Positions 2-7,605 of a DNA stretch of 10,565 nucleotides are shown here, piece after piece. Both the position numbers and the translations under genes were made by a program. The notes under the pieces were generated by a model. The model did not search any database. It was given only the letters and a program-made list of their open reading frames with translations, and was not told the DNA's origin. The stretch's first letter is position 1; every line of letters starts with the position of its first letter. Origin of the DNA: an uncultured Nitrosomonadales bacterium (GTDB lineage: Bacteria > Pseudomonadota > Gammaproteobacteria > Burkholderiales > Gallionellaceae); contig CAIZNF010000261.1 of the NCBI GenBank assembly GCA_903934275.1, forward strand, positions 1 to 10,565, read 5' to 3'.

Positions 2-1414
2 ATGCGCAAGGATGCCGGTACTTACGGCGACGCACAGCGACTCGAACAGCTTGGCTGGATGTTCTTCCTGAAGATTTTCGACGACCGCGAAAAAGAACTC
101 GAAATCCTGCGCGACCACTACAAATCGCCGCTGCCCAAGCATCTGCGCTGGTCGGAGTGGGCCACCAATGAAGAAGGCATCACCGGCGAGGCGCTGCTCG
201 ACTTCGTCAACAATACGCTATTGCCGAAACTCAAGGCGATGACGGGCGGCGCCGACAAAATCGCCGGGCTGATCCGCATGACCTTCGAGGATGCCAACAA
301 CTACATGAAGAACGGCACCCTAATGCGGCAGGTCATCAACAAGGTCAACGGCATCGACTTCAATGCCTCCGATGACCGCCACATGTTCGGCGACATCTAC
401 GAGAAAATCCTCAAAGACCTCCAGTCTGCGGGCAACGCGGGCGAGTTCTACACCCCGCGCGCCGTCACCCAATTCATCGTCGAACAGGTCAACCCGCGCC
501 TCGGCGAAACTATCCTCGATCCCGCCTGCGGCACCGGCGGCTTTCTCACCTGCGCCATCGAACACCTGCGCAAACAGGCCAAGACCGAAGCCGACGAACA
601 TATCATTCAAGACTGCTTTCAGGGCATCGAAAAAAAGCACCTGCCGCATGTACTGTGCATGACCAACCTGCTGTTGCACGGCATCGACGTACCTTCCAAC
701 GTGCGCCACGACAACACGCTGGCGCGCCCGCTACGCGATTGGTCGCCCAAGGAGCGCGTGGACGTGATCGTCACCAACCCGCCGTTCGGCGGCATGGAAG
801 AAGACGGTATCGAAGCCAATTTCCCGTCCGAATTCCGCACCCGCGAAACTGCCGATTTATTTCTCGTGCTGCTGATGAAAATCCTCAAGCCGGGAGGCCG
901 TGCCGGGCTGGTGTTGCCGGACGGCACGCTGTTCGGCGAAGGTGTGAAGACGCGCATCAAGGAAGAGCTGCTGCGCGAGTGCAACCTGCACACCATCGTG
1001 CGCCTGCCCAACGGCGTGTTCAACCCCTACACCGGCATCCGCACCAACCTGCTGTTCTTCACCAAAGGCCAGCCCACCACCGAGGTGTGGTATTACGAGC
1101 ATCCGTATCCAACCGGCGCGAAGAGCTACAACAAAGGCAAGCCGATCCGCATCGAAGAGTTCGAGCCGGAACGAGCGTGGTGGAATAATCGCGTAGAAAA
1201 CGAACAGGCTTGGCGCGTCTCGATTGAAACCATCAAGACGGGCAACTACAACCTCGACCTGAAAAACCCGCACAACTCCGACACCGGCCCCGGCGACGTG
1301 GATCACCTGCTGCCGGAATATGAAAAGCTGCTGGCGCAGATCACCGAGACGCGCACTGCGTTGAAGCAGGAGCTCCATCACGCCCTCACTGAAAAAGCCG
1401 GAAGCGACGCATGA
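2..1414 (+). CDS. hsdM: Type I restriction-modification DNA methyltransferase subunit M (5' end cut by window)
   Basis: HsdM is the adenine-N6 methyltransferase subunit of a type I restriction-modification complex; with HsdS it methylates a bipartite target using S-adenosylmethionine. Visible are the N-terminal signature MRKDAGTYGDAQRLEQL, the family motif GEFYTPR (residues 147-153), the SAM-binding motif I DPACGTGG (173-180) and the catalytic motif IV NPPF (259-262). The C-terminal part (about 330-470) has the RLPNGVFNPYTGIRTNLLFF block typical of the N6_Mtase family. The first ATG is at base 2, but family members normally have some residues before the MRKDAGT block, so the true start probably lies upstream of the window. 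The stop overlaps the start of hsdS as ATGA. No hsdR follows in the cluster, so it must lie to the left or be absent. Identification is firm; whether the enzyme is active is inferred from intact motifs. Confidence 0.96.
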   Translation: MRKDAGTYGDAQRLEQLGWMFFLKIFDDREKELEILRDHYKSPLPKHLRWSEWATNEEGITGEALLDFVNNTLLPKLKAMTGGADKIAGLIRMTFEDANNYMKNGTLMRQVINKVNGIDFNASDDRHMFGDIYEKILKDLQSAGNAGEFYTPRAVTQFIVEQVNPRLGETILDPACGTGGFLTCAIEHLRKQAKTEADEHIIQDCFQGIEKKHLPHVLCMTNLLLHGIDVPSNVRHDNTLARPLRDWSPKERVDVIVTNPPFGGMEEDGIEANFPSEFRTRETADLFLVLLMKILKPGGRAGLVLPDGTLFGEGVKTRIKEELLRECNLHTIVRLPNGVFNPYTGIRTNLLFFTKGQPTTEVWYYEHPYPTGAKSYNKGKPIRIEEFEPERAWWNNRVENEQAWRVSIETIKTGNYNLDLKNPHNSDTGPGDVDHLLPEYEKLLAQITETRTALKQELHHALTEKAGSDA

Positions 1415-3078
1415 AACTGGAGCGGTTTTTCGAGAAGTTCGAGCAGTTTGCAGATACGCCGAATGCGATAGCGAAGATGCGGGAGTTGATCCTCGAATCA
1501 GCGATCCGCGGTAACCTTGTTCCGCACAACGACAGCGACGAGCCTGCATCCGCACTACTCAAACGGACGGAGACCGGCATTCAAGCCGGGAAGGTTCGGA
1601 AACAAGCGGCGCTTCCTCCTGTTGGTGATGATGCCTATCTTCATATCCCACCGGGATGGGAGTGGACAAGACTTGGTAACACTGGACGGATATTCAACGG
1701 CGATAGTGTTAGTGAGAGCGGCAAAGCCGAACTCGCGAAGATCGAAGACGGCCTGCCCTTTATAGCAACTAAAGATGTCGGCTACGGACGAAATACATTG
1801 GTATACGACAACGGACTGAAAGTCGCGCTTGGTGATCCTCGCTTCAAGGTGGCTCGTGCGAAAGCCGTATTGATTTGTGCCGAAGGTGGAAGTGCTGGGC
1901 GGAAGATTGGGATTGCCGATCGCGATATTTGCTTTGGCAACAAGCTTTATGCGAACGAGGTCTGGGAAGGCATTCATCACCGATATATATTCTACGTTTA
2001 TCAAGCGCCGACGTTCTTTAGGGAGTTCGCCGCCAGAATGACCGGGATCATCGGCGGCATTGCGCGCAGTGAGTTCATTTCACTGCCTATTCCATTGCCC
2101 CCCGAAGAAGAGCAGAAGCGCATCGTGGCAAAGGTGGATGAGTTGATGGCTTTGTGTGACCGGCTGGAGGCACAGCAGCAGGAACGTGACACCCGCCACG
2201 CCGCGCTCGCCCGCGCGTCCCTCGCGCGCTTCGCCGAAGCCCCCACCCCGGCCAACCTCGACTTTCTGTTTCACGACTCCTACACCATCACCCCCGCCGA
2301 CTTGCGCAAATCCATTCTCACCCTTGCTGTGCAAGGCAAGCTCGTCCCGCAGAACGCAAACGACGAGCTTGGCGAAGTGTTACTCCAGCGAATTTTGTTA
2401 GATAACTTAGGCCGAAAGCCCGGGAAAAACAGCGTGCCCGAAGTGGATCTCAATGATCTACCATTTAACCTTCCAGGTGGTTGGTCAGTCGCAAAGCTTG
2501 GCTCCATCCTGAATTCGAAGCGGGGTATTTCTTATGGTGTGATTAAACTTGGCCCTGAACCGCAGCAAGGAGGCGTCTATGTTTTGCGTTGCAGCAATGT
2601 CCGTTTTCGTAGGATCGATCTTAGCGGTATCCGTAAAGTGACCGAGGAGCTCTCATCAGAATATGGGCGAACAATTCTCGAAGGAGGTGAGGTCTTGATC
2701 AATGTTCGAGGAACACTCGGCGGATGCGCCGTCGTTCCTCAGTCCTTGAAGGGGTTCAACATTGCGCGGGAAGTAGCCGTAGTTCCCGTACACGCAGAAA
2801 TCGATGCTAATTTTCTTCTGAATGTTGTCGCAGCACCTTATTTCCAAAACAAAGTCGACGAGAGCCTCCGGGGTATCGCTTACGAAGGCCTCAATCTTGG
2901 TCTTTTACGCGACTTCCTCGTCCCCATTCCACCTCTTGCCGAACAACACCGCATCGTCACCAAAGTGGATCGACTCATGGCCTTGGTGGATCAGTTGGAA
3001 ACCCAGCTTGCCGCCTCCCGCACCAGCGCCGTAAAGCTCATGGCAGCCGTGGTCGCCGAACTGACCGCGCAGAATTGA
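1411..3078 (+). CDS. hsdS: Type I restriction-modification specificity subunit S
   Basis: HsdS supplies DNA target recognition for the type I complex, each of its two target recognition domains (TRDs) reading one half of a bipartite site. The 555-residue protein shows the expected internal duplication. A conserved helix block LILESAIRGNLVPHN (26-40) recurs as ILTLAVQGKLVPQN (302-315). TRD1 spans about 75-235 and TRD2 about 350-515. Each TRD ends in a near-identical spacer-helix block, EQKRIVAKVDELMAL (234-248) and EQHRIVTKVDRLMAL (511-525). ATG at 1411 overlaps the hsdM stop (ATGA), and GGAAG at 1400-1404 is a suitable ribosome site six bases before it. The TRD-coding parts look richer in A+T and in less common codons than the conserved blocks, which suggests domain exchange. 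The length is somewhat above the roughly 400-460 residues of many HsdS proteins because of the extended N-terminus and central linker. Confidence 0.95.
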   Translation: MKLERFFEKFEQFADTPNAIAKMRELILESAIRGNLVPHNDSDEPASALLKRTETGIQAGKVRKQAALPPVGDDAYLHIPPGWEWTRLGNTGRIFNGDSVSESGKAELAKIEDGLPFIATKDVGYGRNTLVYDNGLKVALGDPRFKVARAKAVLICAEGGSAGRKIGIADRDICFGNKLYANEVWEGIHHRYIFYVYQAPTFFREFAARMTGIIGGIARSEFISLPIPLPPEEEQKRIVAKVDELMALCDRLEAQQQERDTRHAALARASLARFAEAPTPANLDFLFHDSYTITPADLRKSILTLAVQGKLVPQNANDELGEVLLQRILLDNLGRKPGKNSVPEVDLNDLPFNLPGGWSVAKLGSILNSKRGISYGVIKLGPEPQQGGVYVLRCSNVRFRRIDLSGIRKVTEELSSEYGRTILEGGEVLINVRGTLGGCAVVPQSLKGFNIAREVAVVPVHAEIDANFLLNVVAAPYFQNKVDESLRGIAYEGLNLGLLRDFLVPIPPLAEQHRIVTKVDRLMALVDQLETQLAASRTSAVKLMAAVVAELTAQN

Positions 3079-3081
3079 ACT

Positions 3082-4188
3082 ATGTCGAAGAATCACATGT
3101 TTACTTTTGACCACGAAGCCTCGCTGGAAGAACTTGCTGGCATCGGCAAGAACCGCCGCTTCGACGAAGTCATCGACGACGAGGAAAGTGAGGATATTCA
3201 GGTCATCTGCAAACGCGGTGATGAGGAAATTCCCCTCGCGAAACCCAGCCGTGCCTTCTACTTCGGCGACCGTGCGCTCTACGATCAAGAGGCCAAACGC
3301 TATGACCAGGAAGAAAAATCACGCATCCTCAACACGGATCAATTCACCCGCAACCTTGCTCGCTTCGATGAACTAAAACGCGCCTGCCAGCGCGGCTTCG
3401 TCATTCCGTTTGTTGGCGCAGGCATGTCAAAAAGCGCGGGGCTTCCGGAGTGGAAGGAGTATTTGCTCGGCCTCTGCCCGGAGGCAAATCTTGATGCAGA
3501 TGCCATGCGCGAACGGCTGGAAATAAACGGCGATTACGAAGGTGTGATGAATGATCTGGTTCAGGCGCTCGGTGTAAACCGCTTCAATCTCGATTTCGAA
3601 CGCGACTTCAAGACGCCGGAAAATATTTCTGGTGCAGTGACGCTGTTACCACGCCTGTTCGACAGTTGTGCAGTCACCACCAATTTCGACCGGGTGCTCG
3701 AACAGGTCTATACGAGCGAGGGCCGGGCATTCGTTGAAAAAGTGACCGGGCGGGGAATGGCGAACGCCTTCTTCCGCGCGATTCCTGCCGGTGATCGCTA
3801 CCTTTTGAAATTGCATGGCAACCTCGACAATGCTGCCGAGCGCGTGTTGATTCAAGCCGAATACGATACCGCCTACGGCAATGACGGCAACATCCATTTC
3901 GACTTCCCGTTGCCGAAACTGCTGAAGCGCCTCTTCACCAGTTACAGCTTCCTCTTCGTCGGTTGCAGCCTCTCCGCCGACCGTACCATCCAGACCTTTA
4001 TGAAAGTCGCGCAGGAGCTTGGTGGCGACAACCTGCCCCACCACTACGCGCTTCTCGCCAGCCCAGCCGACACCGCAAAGCGCCAAGTTCTCGACCAACG
4101 CCTTGCTGATGCGCACATAACGCCTGTGTGGTATCCCGATGGTGAGCACGACCATGTCGAACAGATTCTTCAGCTGCTCAGCGAGTAA
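3082..4188 (+). CDS. SIR2-like domain protein, probable NAD-binding defence effector
   Basis: A SIR2-family Rossmann domain occupies about residues 103-330 of 368. Visible are the NAD-binding glycine loop FVGAGMSKSAG (110-120), TTNFD (199-203) with its conserved Asn and Asp, KLHGN (243-247) with the candidate catalytic His245, and the second glycine loop FVGCSLSAD (292-300). This arrangement matches the SIR2_2 type found in bacterial defence genes, where known members (for example in ThsA and DSR systems) hydrolyse NAD+ rather than deacetylate proteins. The first 100 residues are an extension without a recognised domain, very acidic near 28-49. The gene starts three bases after the hsdS stop and ends 17 bases before the kinase gene, so it is probably co-transcribed with hsdMS. 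The ribosome site is weak; ATG at 3097 (Met6) is an alternative start. The NADase role is inferred from family motifs; SIR2_2 domains can also serve only as sensors. Confidence 0.85.
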   Translation: MSKNHMFTFDHEASLEELAGIGKNRRFDEVIDDEESEDIQVICKRGDEEIPLAKPSRAFYFGDRALYDQEAKRYDQEEKSRILNTDQFTRNLARFDELKRACQRGFVIPFVGAGMSKSAGLPEWKEYLLGLCPEANLDADAMRERLEINGDYEGVMNDLVQALGVNRFNLDFERDFKTPENISGAVTLLPRLFDSCAVTTNFDRVLEQVYTSEGRAFVEKVTGRGMANAFFRAIPAGDRYLLKLHGNLDNAAERVLIQAEYDTAYGNDGNIHFDFPLPKLLKRLFTSYSFLFVGCSLSADRTIQTFMKVAQELGGDNLPHHYALLASPADTAKRQVLDQRLADAHITPVWYPDGEHDHVEQILQLLSE

Positions 4189-4205: not shown

Positions 4206-5114
4206 ATGAGTTACCCAATCATTCAGCTTCCCGACGACGCGCCTACCCAGCTTGAGCAGTTGGGTACAAAAACCAAGTTCTGGTTTCGCGATCAGGGCGG
4301 GCATAGCATGTTGTTCAAGGAGGGCAGGCCGGGCACGGGCGAAAATTGGGCGGAGAAGGTCTGCTGTGAAATTTGCCAGCTTCTTGATATTCCCCATGCC
4401 ACCTATGATCTGGCGGTCTGGAAGGAGCGCAAAGGTGTCGTGTCTCCGATATTTGTCCCGGAGGGCGGACGTCTGGTGTGTGGCAACGAGTTGCTGGCAA
4501 AGATCATCAATGACTATGAAGAGGGCAAGCGTTATAAGGTGCGGCAGCACACCGTGCGTTCCGTGATGGCGGTGGCATCTGCCAAGGCTATCGGATTGCC
4601 ATTAGGCTGGGCGGCGCCATCTGCAATCAAGGATTCTGCGGGCCTCTTTGCAGGTTACCTCATGCTGGATGCGCTGATCAGCAACCAGGATCGCCACCAC
4701 GAGAATTGGGGGCTGGTTTTTGTGCCGGACAAGGGTGTTTTTTTTGCGCCTACATTCGATCATGCTTCCAGCCTGGGGCGGAACGAGACCGATAAAGTTC
4801 GCACCGAGATGCTGGCTACTCGTGACAAGGGGCGTAGCGTGGAAGCTTATGTCCAGCGTGCCATATCGGCCCTGTATGCATCCCCCTCCAGCTCCAAGCC
4901 ATTGGGAACCTTGGAAGCATTCACAGAAGCAGCTAAAATTCGCCCTGACGCGGCCAGTTACTGGATGGGCAAGCTGGCCGATATCAATCTTGAGGGGTTC
5001 AGGACCATATTGGCGGAAGTTCCCGGTTCGGAGATTTCAGCGCCTGCGCGTGATTTTGCGTGTAGGATACTGGAGGTCAATATGCAAAGAATCCTGAAAT
5101 ATTCGGGTGGTTAA
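4206..5114 (+). CDS. HipA-like Ser/Thr kinase, short form lacking N-subdomain 1 (HipT-like)
   Basis: This 302-residue protein has the C-terminal kinase fold of the HipA/CtkA family. Visible are a probable ATP-binding lysine in LFKEG (Lys38), an acidic pairing residue in NWAEKVCCEI (Glu50), GNELL (93-97), the catalytic loop NQDRHHENWG (160-169, probable base Asp162 and metal ligand Asn167), and the metal-binding FDHASSLG (184-191, Asp185) that stands in for DFG. HipA itself is about 440 residues and begins with a roughly 100-residue N-subdomain 1. That part is missing here, and a similar sequence is found at the front of the next gene. Related short kinases (HipT of HipBST) phosphorylate translation components such as tRNA synthetases; the target here cannot be read from sequence. 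It follows the SIR2 gene by 17 bases and is followed by the HIRAN gene after 18. No HipB-type helix-turn-helix gene lies beside it. The kinase family is well supported; a toxin role is inference. Confidence 0.85.
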   Translation: MSYPIIQLPDDAPTQLEQLGTKTKFWFRDQGGHSMLFKEGRPGTGENWAEKVCCEICQLLDIPHATYDLAVWKERKGVVSPIFVPEGGRLVCGNELLAKIINDYEEGKRYKVRQHTVRSVMAVASAKAIGLPLGWAAPSAIKDSAGLFAGYLMLDALISNQDRHHENWGLVFVPDKGVFFAPTFDHASSLGRNETDKVRTEMLATRDKGRSVEAYVQRAISALYASPSSSKPLGTLEAFTEAAKIRPDAASYWMGKLADINLEGFRTILAEVPGSEISAPARDFACRILEVNMQRILKYSGG

Positions 5115-5115
5115 T

Positions 5116-5136
5116 ATGGAAGTGTGGATGCAATGA
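5116..5136 (+). other. Six-codon open frame overlapping the HIRAN gene start
   Basis: ATG at 5116, two bases after the kinase stop, opens a frame of six codons (MEVWMQ) whose TGA overlaps the ATG at 5133 as ATGA. It could let ribosomes leaving the kinase gene re-initiate at the HIRAN gene. It may equally be chance. Confidence 0.15.
5118..5122 (+). promoter_or_regulatory. Ribosome binding site GGAAG that decides the HIRAN gene start
   Basis: GGAAG stands ten bases before ATG 5133 but only one base before the in-frame GTG at 5124. It therefore supports initiation at 5133. Confidence 0.5.
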
Positions 5137-5861
5137 AAGCGCTGTTTGTCGCATGGCAAGATATGAAAAACCGTAGCTGGGCGCCGGTGGGTCGACTTAC
5201 GCATGAAGACGGCGTTTATCGCTTTGTTTACACGCGCGGTGCGGAGACTATGCCCGATTTCAGGCCGTTTGGCGTCATGCAGGATTTGCATTCGGCATAC
5301 AAGTCGGAGAAGTTATTCCCCCTCTTCGCCAACCGGATTTTGGCGAAGAATCGTCCCGAGTATGGCGACTACCTGAAATGGTTGGGATTGAATGAGGCCC
5401 GGTATGACGAGTTAGAGGAACTCGCGCGCACTGGCGGTTTGCGTGCGACCGATTCCCTGGAGCTTTTTCCCTGTCCCGAGCCAACCACTGGTAAAAACTA
5501 TGAGGTTTATTTTTTCTGCCGGGGACTGCGTCACCTGCATACGGAAAATCAGGAGCGTGCCCAGCAGTTGAAACCGGGTGAGCGTTTGTATCTGATGCAG
5601 GATTTACAGAATCCCCATGACCCGATGGCGTTGTTGATGCGCACTGTAGAACCCATCACCCTTGTCGGTTACGCGCCCCGCTACTATTCGGCGGAGTTTA
5701 CTCAACTGATTAAATCCACTGGCCCTGACCAGGTGAAGGTTACCGTAGAGCAGGTTAATCTCAATGCGCCCGCTCAATATCGCGTGCTTTGCAAGCTGAC
5801 CAGCCCTTGGCCCATGAACTTTTCCCCTTGCACCACGAAAGAGTTTGAAGCGCTTGCTTGA
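5133..5861 (+). CDS. HIRAN domain protein with HipA N-subdomain-like (HipS-like) N-terminus
   Basis: The 242-residue protein has two parts. Residues about 122-222 fit a HIRAN domain: a strand with GERLYLMQD (149-157), the signature QNPHDPMAL (159-167), and VGYAPRYYS (178-186). Residues about 17-86 begin with APVGRL (17-22) followed by YRFVYTRGA and FPLFANRIL (62-70). This order (VGxL, FxY, then FF/LFxNxL) resembles HipA N-subdomain 1, with its VGEL and FFDNLLPD landmarks. That is the same region HipA has and the adjacent kinase lacks. In HipBST, a free-standing N-subdomain (HipS) neutralises the kinase HipT. HIRAN domains are known from HLTF, where the domain binds 3' DNA ends. The inferred role is a partner or inhibitor of the kinase with a DNA-sensing domain. 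An in-frame GTG at 5124 would add three residues, but the ribosome site favours 5133. It is the last plus-strand gene of the cluster. HIRAN is well supported; the HipS likeness is a reading by eye. Confidence 0.8.
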   Translation: MKALFVAWQDMKNRSWAPVGRLTHEDGVYRFVYTRGAETMPDFRPFGVMQDLHSAYKSEKLFPLFANRILAKNRPEYGDYLKWLGLNEARYDELEELARTGGLRATDSLELFPCPEPTTGKNYEVYFFCRGLRHLHTENQERAQQLKPGERLYLMQDLQNPHDPMALLMRTVEPITLVGYAPRYYSAEFTQLIKSTGPDQVKVTVEQVNLNAPAQYRVLCKLTSPWPMNFSPCTTKEFEALA

Positions 5862-6054
5862 AGTTCGGTATTTCAGTAAGCAGACGTTCGCAGCAAGCTG
5901 AATCAGATAACCCACCATCGTCCGCATAGGCCGAGAAGCCGACATTCTCAGTGGAAACATCAACTGGCAGTTCATGGCACGCACCGTTCATTCAAGCATC
6001 TAAAATAGCCGCCTATAAGCAGTCATTCAAATACCCTTTGCAGATGCATCGCCA
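5862..6054. other. Convergent intergenic spacer without a recognised gene
   Basis: These 193 bases lie between the end of the HIRAN gene (plus) and the end of the PilZ-like gene (minus). No start codon with a ribosome site and no tRNA-like fold was seen. GCTTGCT (5852-5858, inside the HIRAN gene end) and AGCAAGC (5892-5898) are complementary but 33 bases apart and lack a following T-run, so a factor-independent terminator is not evident. Confidence 0.5.
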
Positions 6055-7593
6055 TTATCGTTCTGACTCCTTTTCCTGCACGATGATGCGAAATTTTGCC
6101 AAATCATAATCAAGACCTTTTTCCAACAATCCGCTAGGGATCAGCAAATAGCTTTTCCCATCCATCTGAGTCTGCAAACTACGATGCGCTGAAAACGTAT
6201 CCACTTTCATCAACAAGCTGACCTCTCCCGAGGGCGCACCTTGTTTTGCTTGCAGCCACAGGGCTGGTTGCCCGTCTTCAAATTCTCCGCCTCCGCCCCC
6301 GCCGCTTTGGGACAAGGCCACGCCGATTATCTGATTGGCCAGCATCTCCACGCCCACATGCAACTGGTTCGCATCATCGCGCATCAGACGGCGCACCACC
6401 GCGACACCCCAATGCGGTACGCCGTCCGGTTGCACGCCGAGCAGGCTGCCGATACGCAGCCCATCCGTCCCCTGCACGGGCAACACGGTAAAAAAACCGC
6501 TGATGCTGATGTCATCTACCTCCCAGAGTGCCGGTTGTTCCTCGTTGAAATTCAACCCTACATCGGTGCGCTCGATCACCTTGGCGAAACCGCTCGCCAC
6601 ATTCAAATTAACCTTGATACCGCGGCGCACACTGCGCCGCAACGGTGGCTCTATCAAATAATCCAGAAGAAATTGCGCGGCCTCGCGCACCTGTTCAGCA
6701 TCGTATGTCCCGCCCAGGTTGATATTTTCCGGGACAACCTTTTTTTCCAGTGCTTTGATCAGCGCTTCCAGTTTCGGCTGCATCGCCGCCATGCCGATAA
6801 AGCGTGTGGATGGATGCACGGCAGTGCCGACCTTGACACGCATCGGCGCTGATGGGCGATCCAGATCAAAGCTGAACAGGCTGCCTGCATCTTGCTGCAC
6901 GCCCATGTAAATGTCGTGGCAGTATTGGGCCGCAATGCGCTCGGTCAGGTGCATATACAGTTGGCTCAGGGTGCCGACCCCGCAACCGTACCATCCTAGC
7001 AGATGTCCAATTTCTCGTTTTACCGTAGTGTTTCCGGACACACCGGAATAAAGGCCTAGCGGTGTATCCAGATATTGCTGTTGCTCGGCATGCCGGTAAA
7101 TTTTGGCAAGATTGTCCCAAATTGTTTTATCGATTGGGCCATAGTGCGCGCAAATATATTTCAACTGCCCGGCCATGGAATGCACCGCACGAACCGCCAG
7201 CAACGGCACATGCGCTTTGACGGCAGCGGCACCTTTGTCACCGCTGCAATAACGGTTGAACACCGCACAGTAAGCCTTGGCAGTATGGCGAAACAAATTA
7301 CCCAGAACCAGCCACAAACGGTTCTCCTGAAATTTATTCAGCTCTTGCGGCGCAAAATAATCGCGTGCCAGTTTCCGCGCATAAGGTTGCGCGGCCTCGT
7401 CGAGCAGGAGCAATACAGCAAACTGGTGATCCAGCTTAAAATCGGTATTATCCGACACTGACTCTACCCAATCGGTCAGCTCCATGAGCGTTTTGTGCGC
7501 GTCATTCTTCGGCAAGTCGTCCAATAACGCTTGCACAGACTTGATATCCGCCATGGGGTGATCGGATTTTTTGCTAAATATGCCCGATAACAT
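6055..7593 (-). CDS. Uncharacterised protein with PilZ-like C-terminal region, possible cyclic-di-GMP binder
   Basis: The 512-residue product has no signal peptide or obvious membrane segment. Residues about 20-300 form a largely helical region I do not recognise, rich in Leu, Ala and aromatic residues. Residues about 319-425 resemble a PilZ domain: an arginine cluster RRSVRR (319-324), then about 35 residues later DDISISG (360-366, fitting D/NxSxxG), then strands WGVAVVRRL (395-403) and LHVGVEML (411-418). PilZ domains bind cyclic-di-GMP through exactly these RxxxR and D/NxSxxG motifs. The spacing between motifs is longer than usual, so binding is a hypothesis. A run of six glycines (about 431-436) precedes a C-terminal domain of roughly 75 residues. 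ATG at 7593 is chosen because GAGG lies six bases before it; an in-frame GTG at 7605 overlaps that site and has none of its own. It is divergent from aat and convergent with the HIRAN gene, so it forms its own transcript. Confidence 0.7.
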   Translation of the reverse strand: MLSGIFSKKSDHPMADIKSVQALLDDLPKNDAHKTLMELTDWVESVSDNTDFKLDHQFAVLLLLDEAAQPYARKLARDYFAPQELNKFQENRLWLVLGNLFRHTAKAYCAVFNRYCSGDKGAAAVKAHVPLLAVRAVHSMAGQLKYICAHYGPIDKTIWDNLAKIYRHAEQQQYLDTPLGLYSGVSGNTTVKREIGHLLGWYGCGVGTLSQLYMHLTERIAAQYCHDIYMGVQQDAGSLFSFDLDRPSAPMRVKVGTAVHPSTRFIGMAAMQPKLEALIKALEKKVVPENINLGGTYDAEQVREAAQFLLDYLIEPPLRRSVRRGIKVNLNVASGFAKVIERTDVGLNFNEEQPALWEVDDISISGFFTVLPVQGTDGLRIGSLLGVQPDGVPHWGVAVVRRLMRDDANQLHVGVEMLANQIIGVALSQSGGGGGGEFEDGQPALWLQAKQGAPSGEVSLLMKVDTFSAHRSLQTQMDGKSYLLIPSGLLEKGLDYDLAKFRIIVQEKESER

Positions 7594-7598
7594 TGTTG

Positions 7599-7604
7599 AC
7601 CTCA
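7599..7604 (-). promoter_or_regulatory. Ribosome binding site TGAGGT of the PilZ-like gene
   Basis: Read on the minus strand, TGAGGT precedes ATG 7593 with about six bases between GAGG and the start. It overlaps the alternative GTG start at 7605, which argues against that codon. Confidence 0.5.
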
Positions 7605-7605
7605 C

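What the first reader, a model, noticed from the sequence alone, without database searches (positions are those of the whole stretch)
4206..5861. Split HipA: kinase half and a HipS-like half fused to a HIRAN domain
The kinase has the HipA catalytic loop and metal-binding motif but no N-subdomain 1. The very next gene begins with a VGRL...FVY...FPLFANRIL pattern resembling that missing subdomain and ends in a HIRAN domain. In HipBST, a free HipS inhibits HipT. Here the order is reversed (kinase first) and the HipS-like part is joined to a putative DNA-end binder. That would make a kinase whose inhibitor could respond to damaged or phage DNA. Motifs are seen; the regulatory link is inferred.
Basis: partly seen in the sequence, partly recalled or inferred. 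Interest (0 to 1): 0.72.

Follow-up and report, generated by a model that had tools for sequence, protein, structure and literature searches.

The report
hipIN kinase module in restriction operon
The two genes are a bacterial kinase and its likely inhibitor carrying a DNA-end-binding domain, a gene pair already described in print; what stands out is that it sits inside a DNA-restriction gene cluster, as some of its relatives do, which hints that it may act in defence against viruses.

The parts
2..1414 (+). hsdM, type I restriction methyltransferase subunit; 5' end cut by the contig start
   Evidence: Pfam N6_Mtase 2.1e-74 and HsdM_N from profile position 15; PADLOC MTase_I 2.1e-220
1411..3078 (+). 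hsdS, type I specificity subunit; overlaps hsdM by 4 bases
   Evidence: Pfam Methylase_S, two stretches, 1.3e-18; PADLOC Specificity_I
3082..4188 (+). SIR2_2-domain protein (368 aa), 3 bases after hsdS
   Evidence: Pfam SIR2_2 4.2e-23; PADLOC ThsA1 1.5e-20, LmuA 1.6e-14
4206..5114 (+). hipI: short HipA-family kinase without N-subdomain 1, 17 bases after the SIR2 gene
   Evidence: PADLOC PDC-M03A 3.2e-119; Pfam HipA_C 8.9e-6, below curated cut-off
4263..4277 (+). Gly-rich loop GTKTK (residues 20-24); T21 is the candidate autophosphorylation site
   Evidence: G20 119/119, T21 112/119, K24 119/119 among distinct sequences; role inferred from the HipA/HipT Gly-rich-loop serine
4317..4319 (+). K38, presumed ATP-binding lysine
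   Evidence: 119/119; role inferred
4683..4709 (+). catalytic motif NQDRHHENW (D162, N167)
   Evidence: D162, R163, H164, N167, W168 each 119/119; role inferred from HipA
4758..4760 (+). D185 of TFDHA, presumed metal-binding aspartate
   Evidence: 119/119; role inferred from HipA
5133..5861 (+). hipN: putative antitoxin, HipS-like plus HIRAN (ATG at 5133 preferred; GTG at 5124 also open)
   Evidence: PADLOC PDC-M03B 4.2e-94; homologue starts
5133..5474 (+). HipS-like / HipA N-subdomain 1 domain (residues 4-117 of the 245-aa frame)
5484..5834 (+). HIRAN domain (residues 121-237)

Best explanation
This is a hipIN module: HipI is a HipA-family Ser/Thr kinase held off by the HipS-like half of HipN, which stands in for the missing N-subdomain 1. 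The HIRAN half is the sensor. When it binds a free DNA end or single strand, as made by infecting phage DNA or by a restriction cut, the lid is loosened, HipI phosphorylates a host target (probably in translation, by analogy with HipA and HipT) and the cell stops growing, which aborts infection. Shown here: domain make-up, conserved active site, near-strict pairing, operon layout, defence and phage contexts. Inferred: inhibition, DNA sensing, target, outcome.
For: Domains. HipS-type inhibition is published for HipBST (passages of PMC10627512, and PMC9325769). Pairing: hipN follows hipI in 79 of 79 testable genome loci (80 kept by the search; L064 ends inside hipI) and in 63 of 63 viral loci; of 78 pairs measured, 44 overlap by 4 bases and 74 overlap or lie within 30 bases. 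Natural fusion HipL in one 547-aa chain, model pTM 0.90. Catalytic residues invariant. Contexts: R-M operons; the slot between a P2-type replication gene and the portal gene in 25 of 63 viral loci, plus 7 with the portal gene next, a hotspot from which anti-phage genes were tested (PMC9122126, passages); beside an integrase gene in the two phage records read.
Against: No toxicity, inhibition or DNA binding was measured. Trp65 of HipS, which blocks HipT, has no clear counterpart by alignment. Pro stands where human HLTF seems to have Phe142 (P216 in 109 of 114; this equivalence is by eye). The Vibrio phage HipN shows no Couple_hipA match at all in Pfam. A hipN on an Oscillatoria plasmid keeps only a 38-residue remnant of the kinase, so hipN can be kept without hipI. 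71 of 81 loci show no R-M gene in the operon by my queries plus the scans of chosen neighbours. The R-M enrichment is modest and lineages are not independent. 31 of 63 viral loci are in neither P2-slot class.
Confidence: 0.6

Rival explanations
1. Restriction-coupled version: hipIN is an add-on effector of the R-M system beside it. DNA ends made by the restriction enzyme, or a phage protein that disables the R-M complex, trigger the kinase, so that a failed or heavy restriction event becomes growth arrest (compare PrrC, recalled, which is encoded in a type I operon).
For: hipIN in operons of type I (window, L032, L054/L060/L077, Rhodococcus plasmid), type ISP (L012, L017, L036), type III (L049) and a DUF1156 methylase (L021). 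8 of 81 against 1 of 69 hipA controls, one-sided Fisher p 0.030.
Against: Most hipIN loci in the sample and the phage-borne copies read have no R-M gene attached; defence genes cluster anyway; p is not corrected for shared ancestry; the tree forces only two changes of the type I label among labelled rows; hsdR was not found next to the window.
Confidence: 0.2
2. HipN is not an antitoxin but a targeting subunit: the HIRAN half brings the kinase to stalled or broken DNA, where it phosphorylates repair or replication proteins.
For: HIRAN in HLTF binds DNA ends and serves fork remodelling (PMC8262856); the HipL fusion keeps kinase and HIRAN together.
Against: The HipS-like half matches domains whose known role is to lid or inhibit the kinase.
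Confidence: 0.15
3. Plain addiction module kept by mobile elements, with HIRAN used for operon control or not at all.
For: Found on plasmids and in phages or prophages.
Against: No HTH domain matched in the pair; HIRAN is thought to bind ends without sequence preference (PMC11706625).
Confidence: 0.05

Closest known systems
hipIN modules (HipI kinase, HipN = HipS-like + HIRAN), Gerdes, Baerentsen and Brodersen 2021, PMC8262856
   Same: short kinase without N-subdomain 1, kinase gene first, downstream two-domain HipN; same hypothesis of phage DNA ends
   Different: that paper's main text has no occurrence of restriction, prophage, PrrC or integrase; here the pair lies behind hsdM-hsdS-SIR2
PADLOC candidate system PDC-M03 (A and B)
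   Same: both proteins match, 3.2e-119 and 4.2e-94
   Different: a computed candidate; the name PDC-M03 is in no paper of the library searched
HipBST (E. coli O127, Legionella)
   Same: kinase and HipS-like domain on separate chains
   Different: order reversed, no HipB gene upstream, HipS joined to HIRAN, Trp65 not evident
HipL (kinase-HipS-HIRAN in one chain)
   Same: same three domains in the same order
   Different: one gene; the E. coli form and its neighbour exonuclease gene are in 61 of 5426 complete genomes, of which one locus was read and is a P2-like prophage
diDNase-HipA-HIRAN clusters, Jan 2025, PMC11706625
   Same: HipI/HIRAN pair in defence and mobile contexts, type I R-M noted near some (passages and section 27)
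   Different: a DEDD dinuclease is the third gene there; none was matched in the window

Membership tests
hipIN (Gerdes 2021) | core kinase without N-subdomain 1 | tested here: met
   Gly-rich loop at residues 20-24, 302 aa; HipA_C match
hipIN (Gerdes 2021) | conserved Gly-rich loop, catalytic and Mg motifs | tested here: met
   invariant or nearly so in 119 sequences; the activation loop was not examined
hipIN (Gerdes 2021) | downstream gene coding HipS-like + HIRAN | tested here: met
[quoted passage not shown]
   the paper's sequences were not at hand
hipIN (Gerdes 2021) | HipN neutralises HipI | not testable with these tools
   needs expression; given as a possibility in that paper
HipBST | hipB (HTH) and hipS upstream of the kinase | tested here: not met
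   upstream genes are SIR2, hsdS, hsdM
HipBST | inhibitory Trp65 in HipS | tested here: inconclusive
   no Trp at the aligned place; no superposition was possible, and the paper says it is in some HipS only
HIRAN domain | Pfam match over curated cut-off and fold | tested here: met
HIRAN domain | binding of DNA ends | not testable with these tools
   N163/D166 motif kept; duplex-binding Phe apparently replaced by Pro
Type I R-M operon | hsdM, hsdS and hsdR together | tested here: inconclusive
   hsdM and hsdS present; the contig starts inside hsdM; no end overlap with five whole contigs and most of a sixth (20,000 of 22,406 bases) that match HSDR_N
HipL | kinase, HipS-like and HIRAN in one chain | tested here: not met
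   two genes, TAA between them

The most novel reading that the evidence does not exclude
hipIN is a portable kinase effector coupled to restriction: restriction systems of several unrelated types have separately taken it into their operons, and HIRAN reads the DNA ends that restriction makes (or the loss of restriction) and turns them into kinase-driven abortive infection.
Probability: 0.2. Interest if true: 0.75.

Novelty: new member of a known kind. Interest (0 to 1): 0.4.

Why it matters
The module and its hypothesis have been in print since 2021, and I found no experiment on it in the library searched. The contexts gathered here make the hypothesis directly testable: the same domains as a single gene (HipL) in a P2-like prophage slot known to hold anti-phage genes, with the gene in 61 of 5426 complete E. 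coli genomes, and as a pair inside restriction operons of types I, ISP and III. If HIRAN gates the kinase, it would link DNA-end sensing to a HipA-type kinase and could explain why restriction systems carry it.

Tried and rejected
Full-length HipN profile against PDB sequences: no match. Foldseek with the HipN model listed, below E 0.01, only HLTF HIRAN entries and the related-looking lp_0118 (3k2y); the HipS match came from the VIA-align second look. Structural alignment of the HipL model with HipA covered the kinase part only (about residues 7-317), since HipL carries its HipS domain after the kinase; so the position of the lid on the kinase was not tested. A first R-M census gave 9 of 81 against 0 of 19 (one of 20 fetched controls had no hipA ORF). 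It used queries taken from the loci themselves, so I redid it leave-one-out with 80 fetched controls, of which 11 had no recognisable hipA ORF and were dropped. L021 then falls out because it is its own query, and L049 (type III) likewise; both are counted only through domain scans of 20 chosen neighbour proteins and a few more, not done on the controls nor on every locus. In one search, three genome loci seemed to lack hipN; two have it, masked by my ORF caller. Three weak kinase hits in the family search (E about 1e-12) were not followed. The family hits G569, G398 and G422 match the contig lengths of L012, L018 and L017 and are not extra evidence. A search with HirAT as a word gave nothing useful, and one for PrrC as a guard gave no paper I used. 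A SIR2 relative was seen only in the window among the loci scanned.

Full report
What is there. The window is one whole contig (10565 bases) of a 722-contig, 94% complete assembly. The closest named HipN, 95% identical, is labelled Gallionella sp.. On the + strand, in tight sequence, lie hsdM (2-1414, cut at its start), hsdS (1411-3078), a SIR2_2 protein (3082-4188), the kinase (4206-5114) and the HIRAN protein (5124 or more likely 5133 to 5861). Gaps are -4, 3, 17 and 9 or 18 bases, so one operon is likely. A convergent gene without a Pfam match follows (6055-7605), then reading frames that look like aat, bpt and pyrD (my reading of the sequences, not searched). GC content is even, 0.53-0.59 over the genes.

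Checking the observation. The kinase matches HipA_C over residues 148-213 at E 8.9e-6, below Pfam's own cut-off, and PADLOC's PDC-M03A at 3.2e-119. Among 119 distinct sequences K38, D162, R163, H164, N167, W168 and D185 are kept in 119, and T21 beside the Gly-rich loop in 112. Nothing precedes the Gly-rich loop that could be N-subdomain 1. The second protein has HIRAN over the cut-off and only a 12.5-bit hint of Couple_hipA. A profile of HipN residues 1-112 (114 sequences, 79 after filtering) against 29 HipA N-terminal segments gave 92.9% and E 3.8e-7; HIRAN half against HipA, kinase against HipA, HipN half against HIRAN and against kinase gave 0.3, 0.3, 8.2 and 0.7%. Distant relatives vary on Pfam's Couple_hipA: 19.5 bits in a C. 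difficile phage HipN and 18.4 in a Rhodococcus plasmid HipN, both under the 22.5 cut-off, no match in a Vibrio phage HipN, and 26.9, over the cut-off, in a fused HipL.

Pairing. 80 genome loci (the best 80 of 397 relatives) and 63 viral loci, with 36 distinct HipN among them, were examined. hipN follows hipI in all of them except L064, whose contig ends inside hipI. Of 78 pairs measured, 44 overlap by 4 bases. Outside that sample, an Oscillatoria plasmid keeps hipN with only a remnant of the kinase's C-terminus before it (profile 262-299, E 2.9e-7), and in a Mycolicibacterium plasmid an IS110 gene lies between kinase and HIRAN gene. The module is rare: a HipN profile hit 2 of 398 Pseudomonadota genomes, one of them the window's own and the other weak, E 2e-4; a HipI profile hit 7 of 158 genomes of the family, three of them weakly.

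Context. The window's pair sits behind hsdM-hsdS-SIR2. Other loci: hsdR-hipI-hipN-hsdS-hsdM (L032), hsdM-hipI-hipN-hsdS with hsdR downstream (L054, L060; L077 has hsdM before and hsdS nearby), a DEAD-box helicase family protein, hsdS, hipI, hipN and a DNA methyltransferase on a Rhodococcus plasmid, a type ISP enzyme directly upstream (L012, L017, L036), type III mod and res upstream (L049) and a DUF1156 methylase (L021). With leave-one-out queries, 8 of 81 hipIN loci (window included) and 1 of 69 hipA loci have an R-M gene in the same-strand chain (one-sided p 0.030), and 13 of 81 against 3 of 69 anywhere in the flanks (p 0.018). A tree of 89 kinases puts the window and the L032/Chromatiaceae group in different well-supported clades, type ISP in two places, and the Rhodococcus copy on a long, unsure branch outside; among labelled rows it forces two changes for type I and two for ISP. 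So several separate associations are likely, but the count is small and the test is not lineage-corrected.

Phages. In 25 of 63 viral loci hipIN lies between a replication gene of P2 type and the portal gene; in 7 more the portal gene is next, in 5 an integrase is near, and 26 fall in none of these classes. Many of the 25 are near-copies. Rousset et al. 2022 (PMC9122126, passages) place a hotspot between gpA and the portal gene gpQ of P2-like phages and tested systems from it, several of them active; their text has no HipA and no HIRAN (listing). HipL stands in the same slot beside a DEDD 3'-5' exonuclease in the E. coli locus and phage read; the two genes are found in 61 of 5426 genomes at 99% identity or more. 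In a Vibrio PM2-like phage and a C. difficile phage hipIN stands next to the integrase.

What is known. Gerdes et al. 2021 (abstract, outline, section 3 parts 1 and 2, section 15 and passages) named hipIN and HipL, described this anatomy, and proposed that HIRAN recognises phage DNA ends and so frees the kinase for abortive infection. They noted that most bacterial HIRAN domains lack the Phe needed for duplex DNA and may bind single strands. The NAR 2025 paper (passages and section 27) found diDNase genes beside HipA/HIRAN pairs and noted type I R-M near some. Searches for later work on hipIN, HipN or HipL (listings, the first showing 20 of 150), on HIRAN with HipA and defence and on PDC-M03 showed no experiment on the module. 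HipS inhibition of HipT is established (PMC10627512, passages; PMC9325769, passages).

Verdict. The feature is real and is a hipIN module, a known kind. Its restriction-operon setting is the part I did not find stated in the papers read, and it supports, without proving, a defence role triggered by DNA ends.

Noticed in passing
window 3082-4188; L233 9265-10404: A SIR2_2 protein follows hsdS; in a family relative (G568) a SIR2_2 protein lies between a type I methylase-like gene and an hsdR-like gene, followed by a Schlafen AlbA_2 protein where the window has hipIN, so this slot of the operon may carry exchangeable effectors.
   Followed up: partly
L188 3119-3670; L194 15001-15552: A DEDD 3'-5' exonuclease (Rv2179c-like) precedes HipL in the P2-like prophage, recalling the published diDNase next to HipI/HIRAN.
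   Followed up: partly
L026 4544-9786; L031 528-5803: A UvrD-PDDEXK protein and a RecD-like helicase lie upstream of hipIN on the same strand in L026, and ORFs of similar size in the related L031 (L031 proteins not scanned).
   Followed up: no
L192 1-7122: A Nostoc plasmid carries hipIN convergent with genes annotated DUF499 and DUF1156.
   Followed up: no
L187 3854-5596: A Selenomonas plasmid has a HipA-domain gene followed by a recombinase, which resembles the published hipMP type.
   Followed up: no
window 6055-7605 (-): A 516-aa protein without any Pfam match faces hipN.
   Followed up: no
L185 about 5870-6750: An Oscillatoria plasmid keeps a hipN behind a short remnant of hipI only.
   Followed up: partly
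L189 7253-7711; L193 8382-8960: Two Mycolicibacterium plasmid copies have an annotated HIRAN protein of 152 and 192 aa, shorter than full HipN; in L193 an IS110 transposase gene lies between it and the kinase.
   Followed up: no
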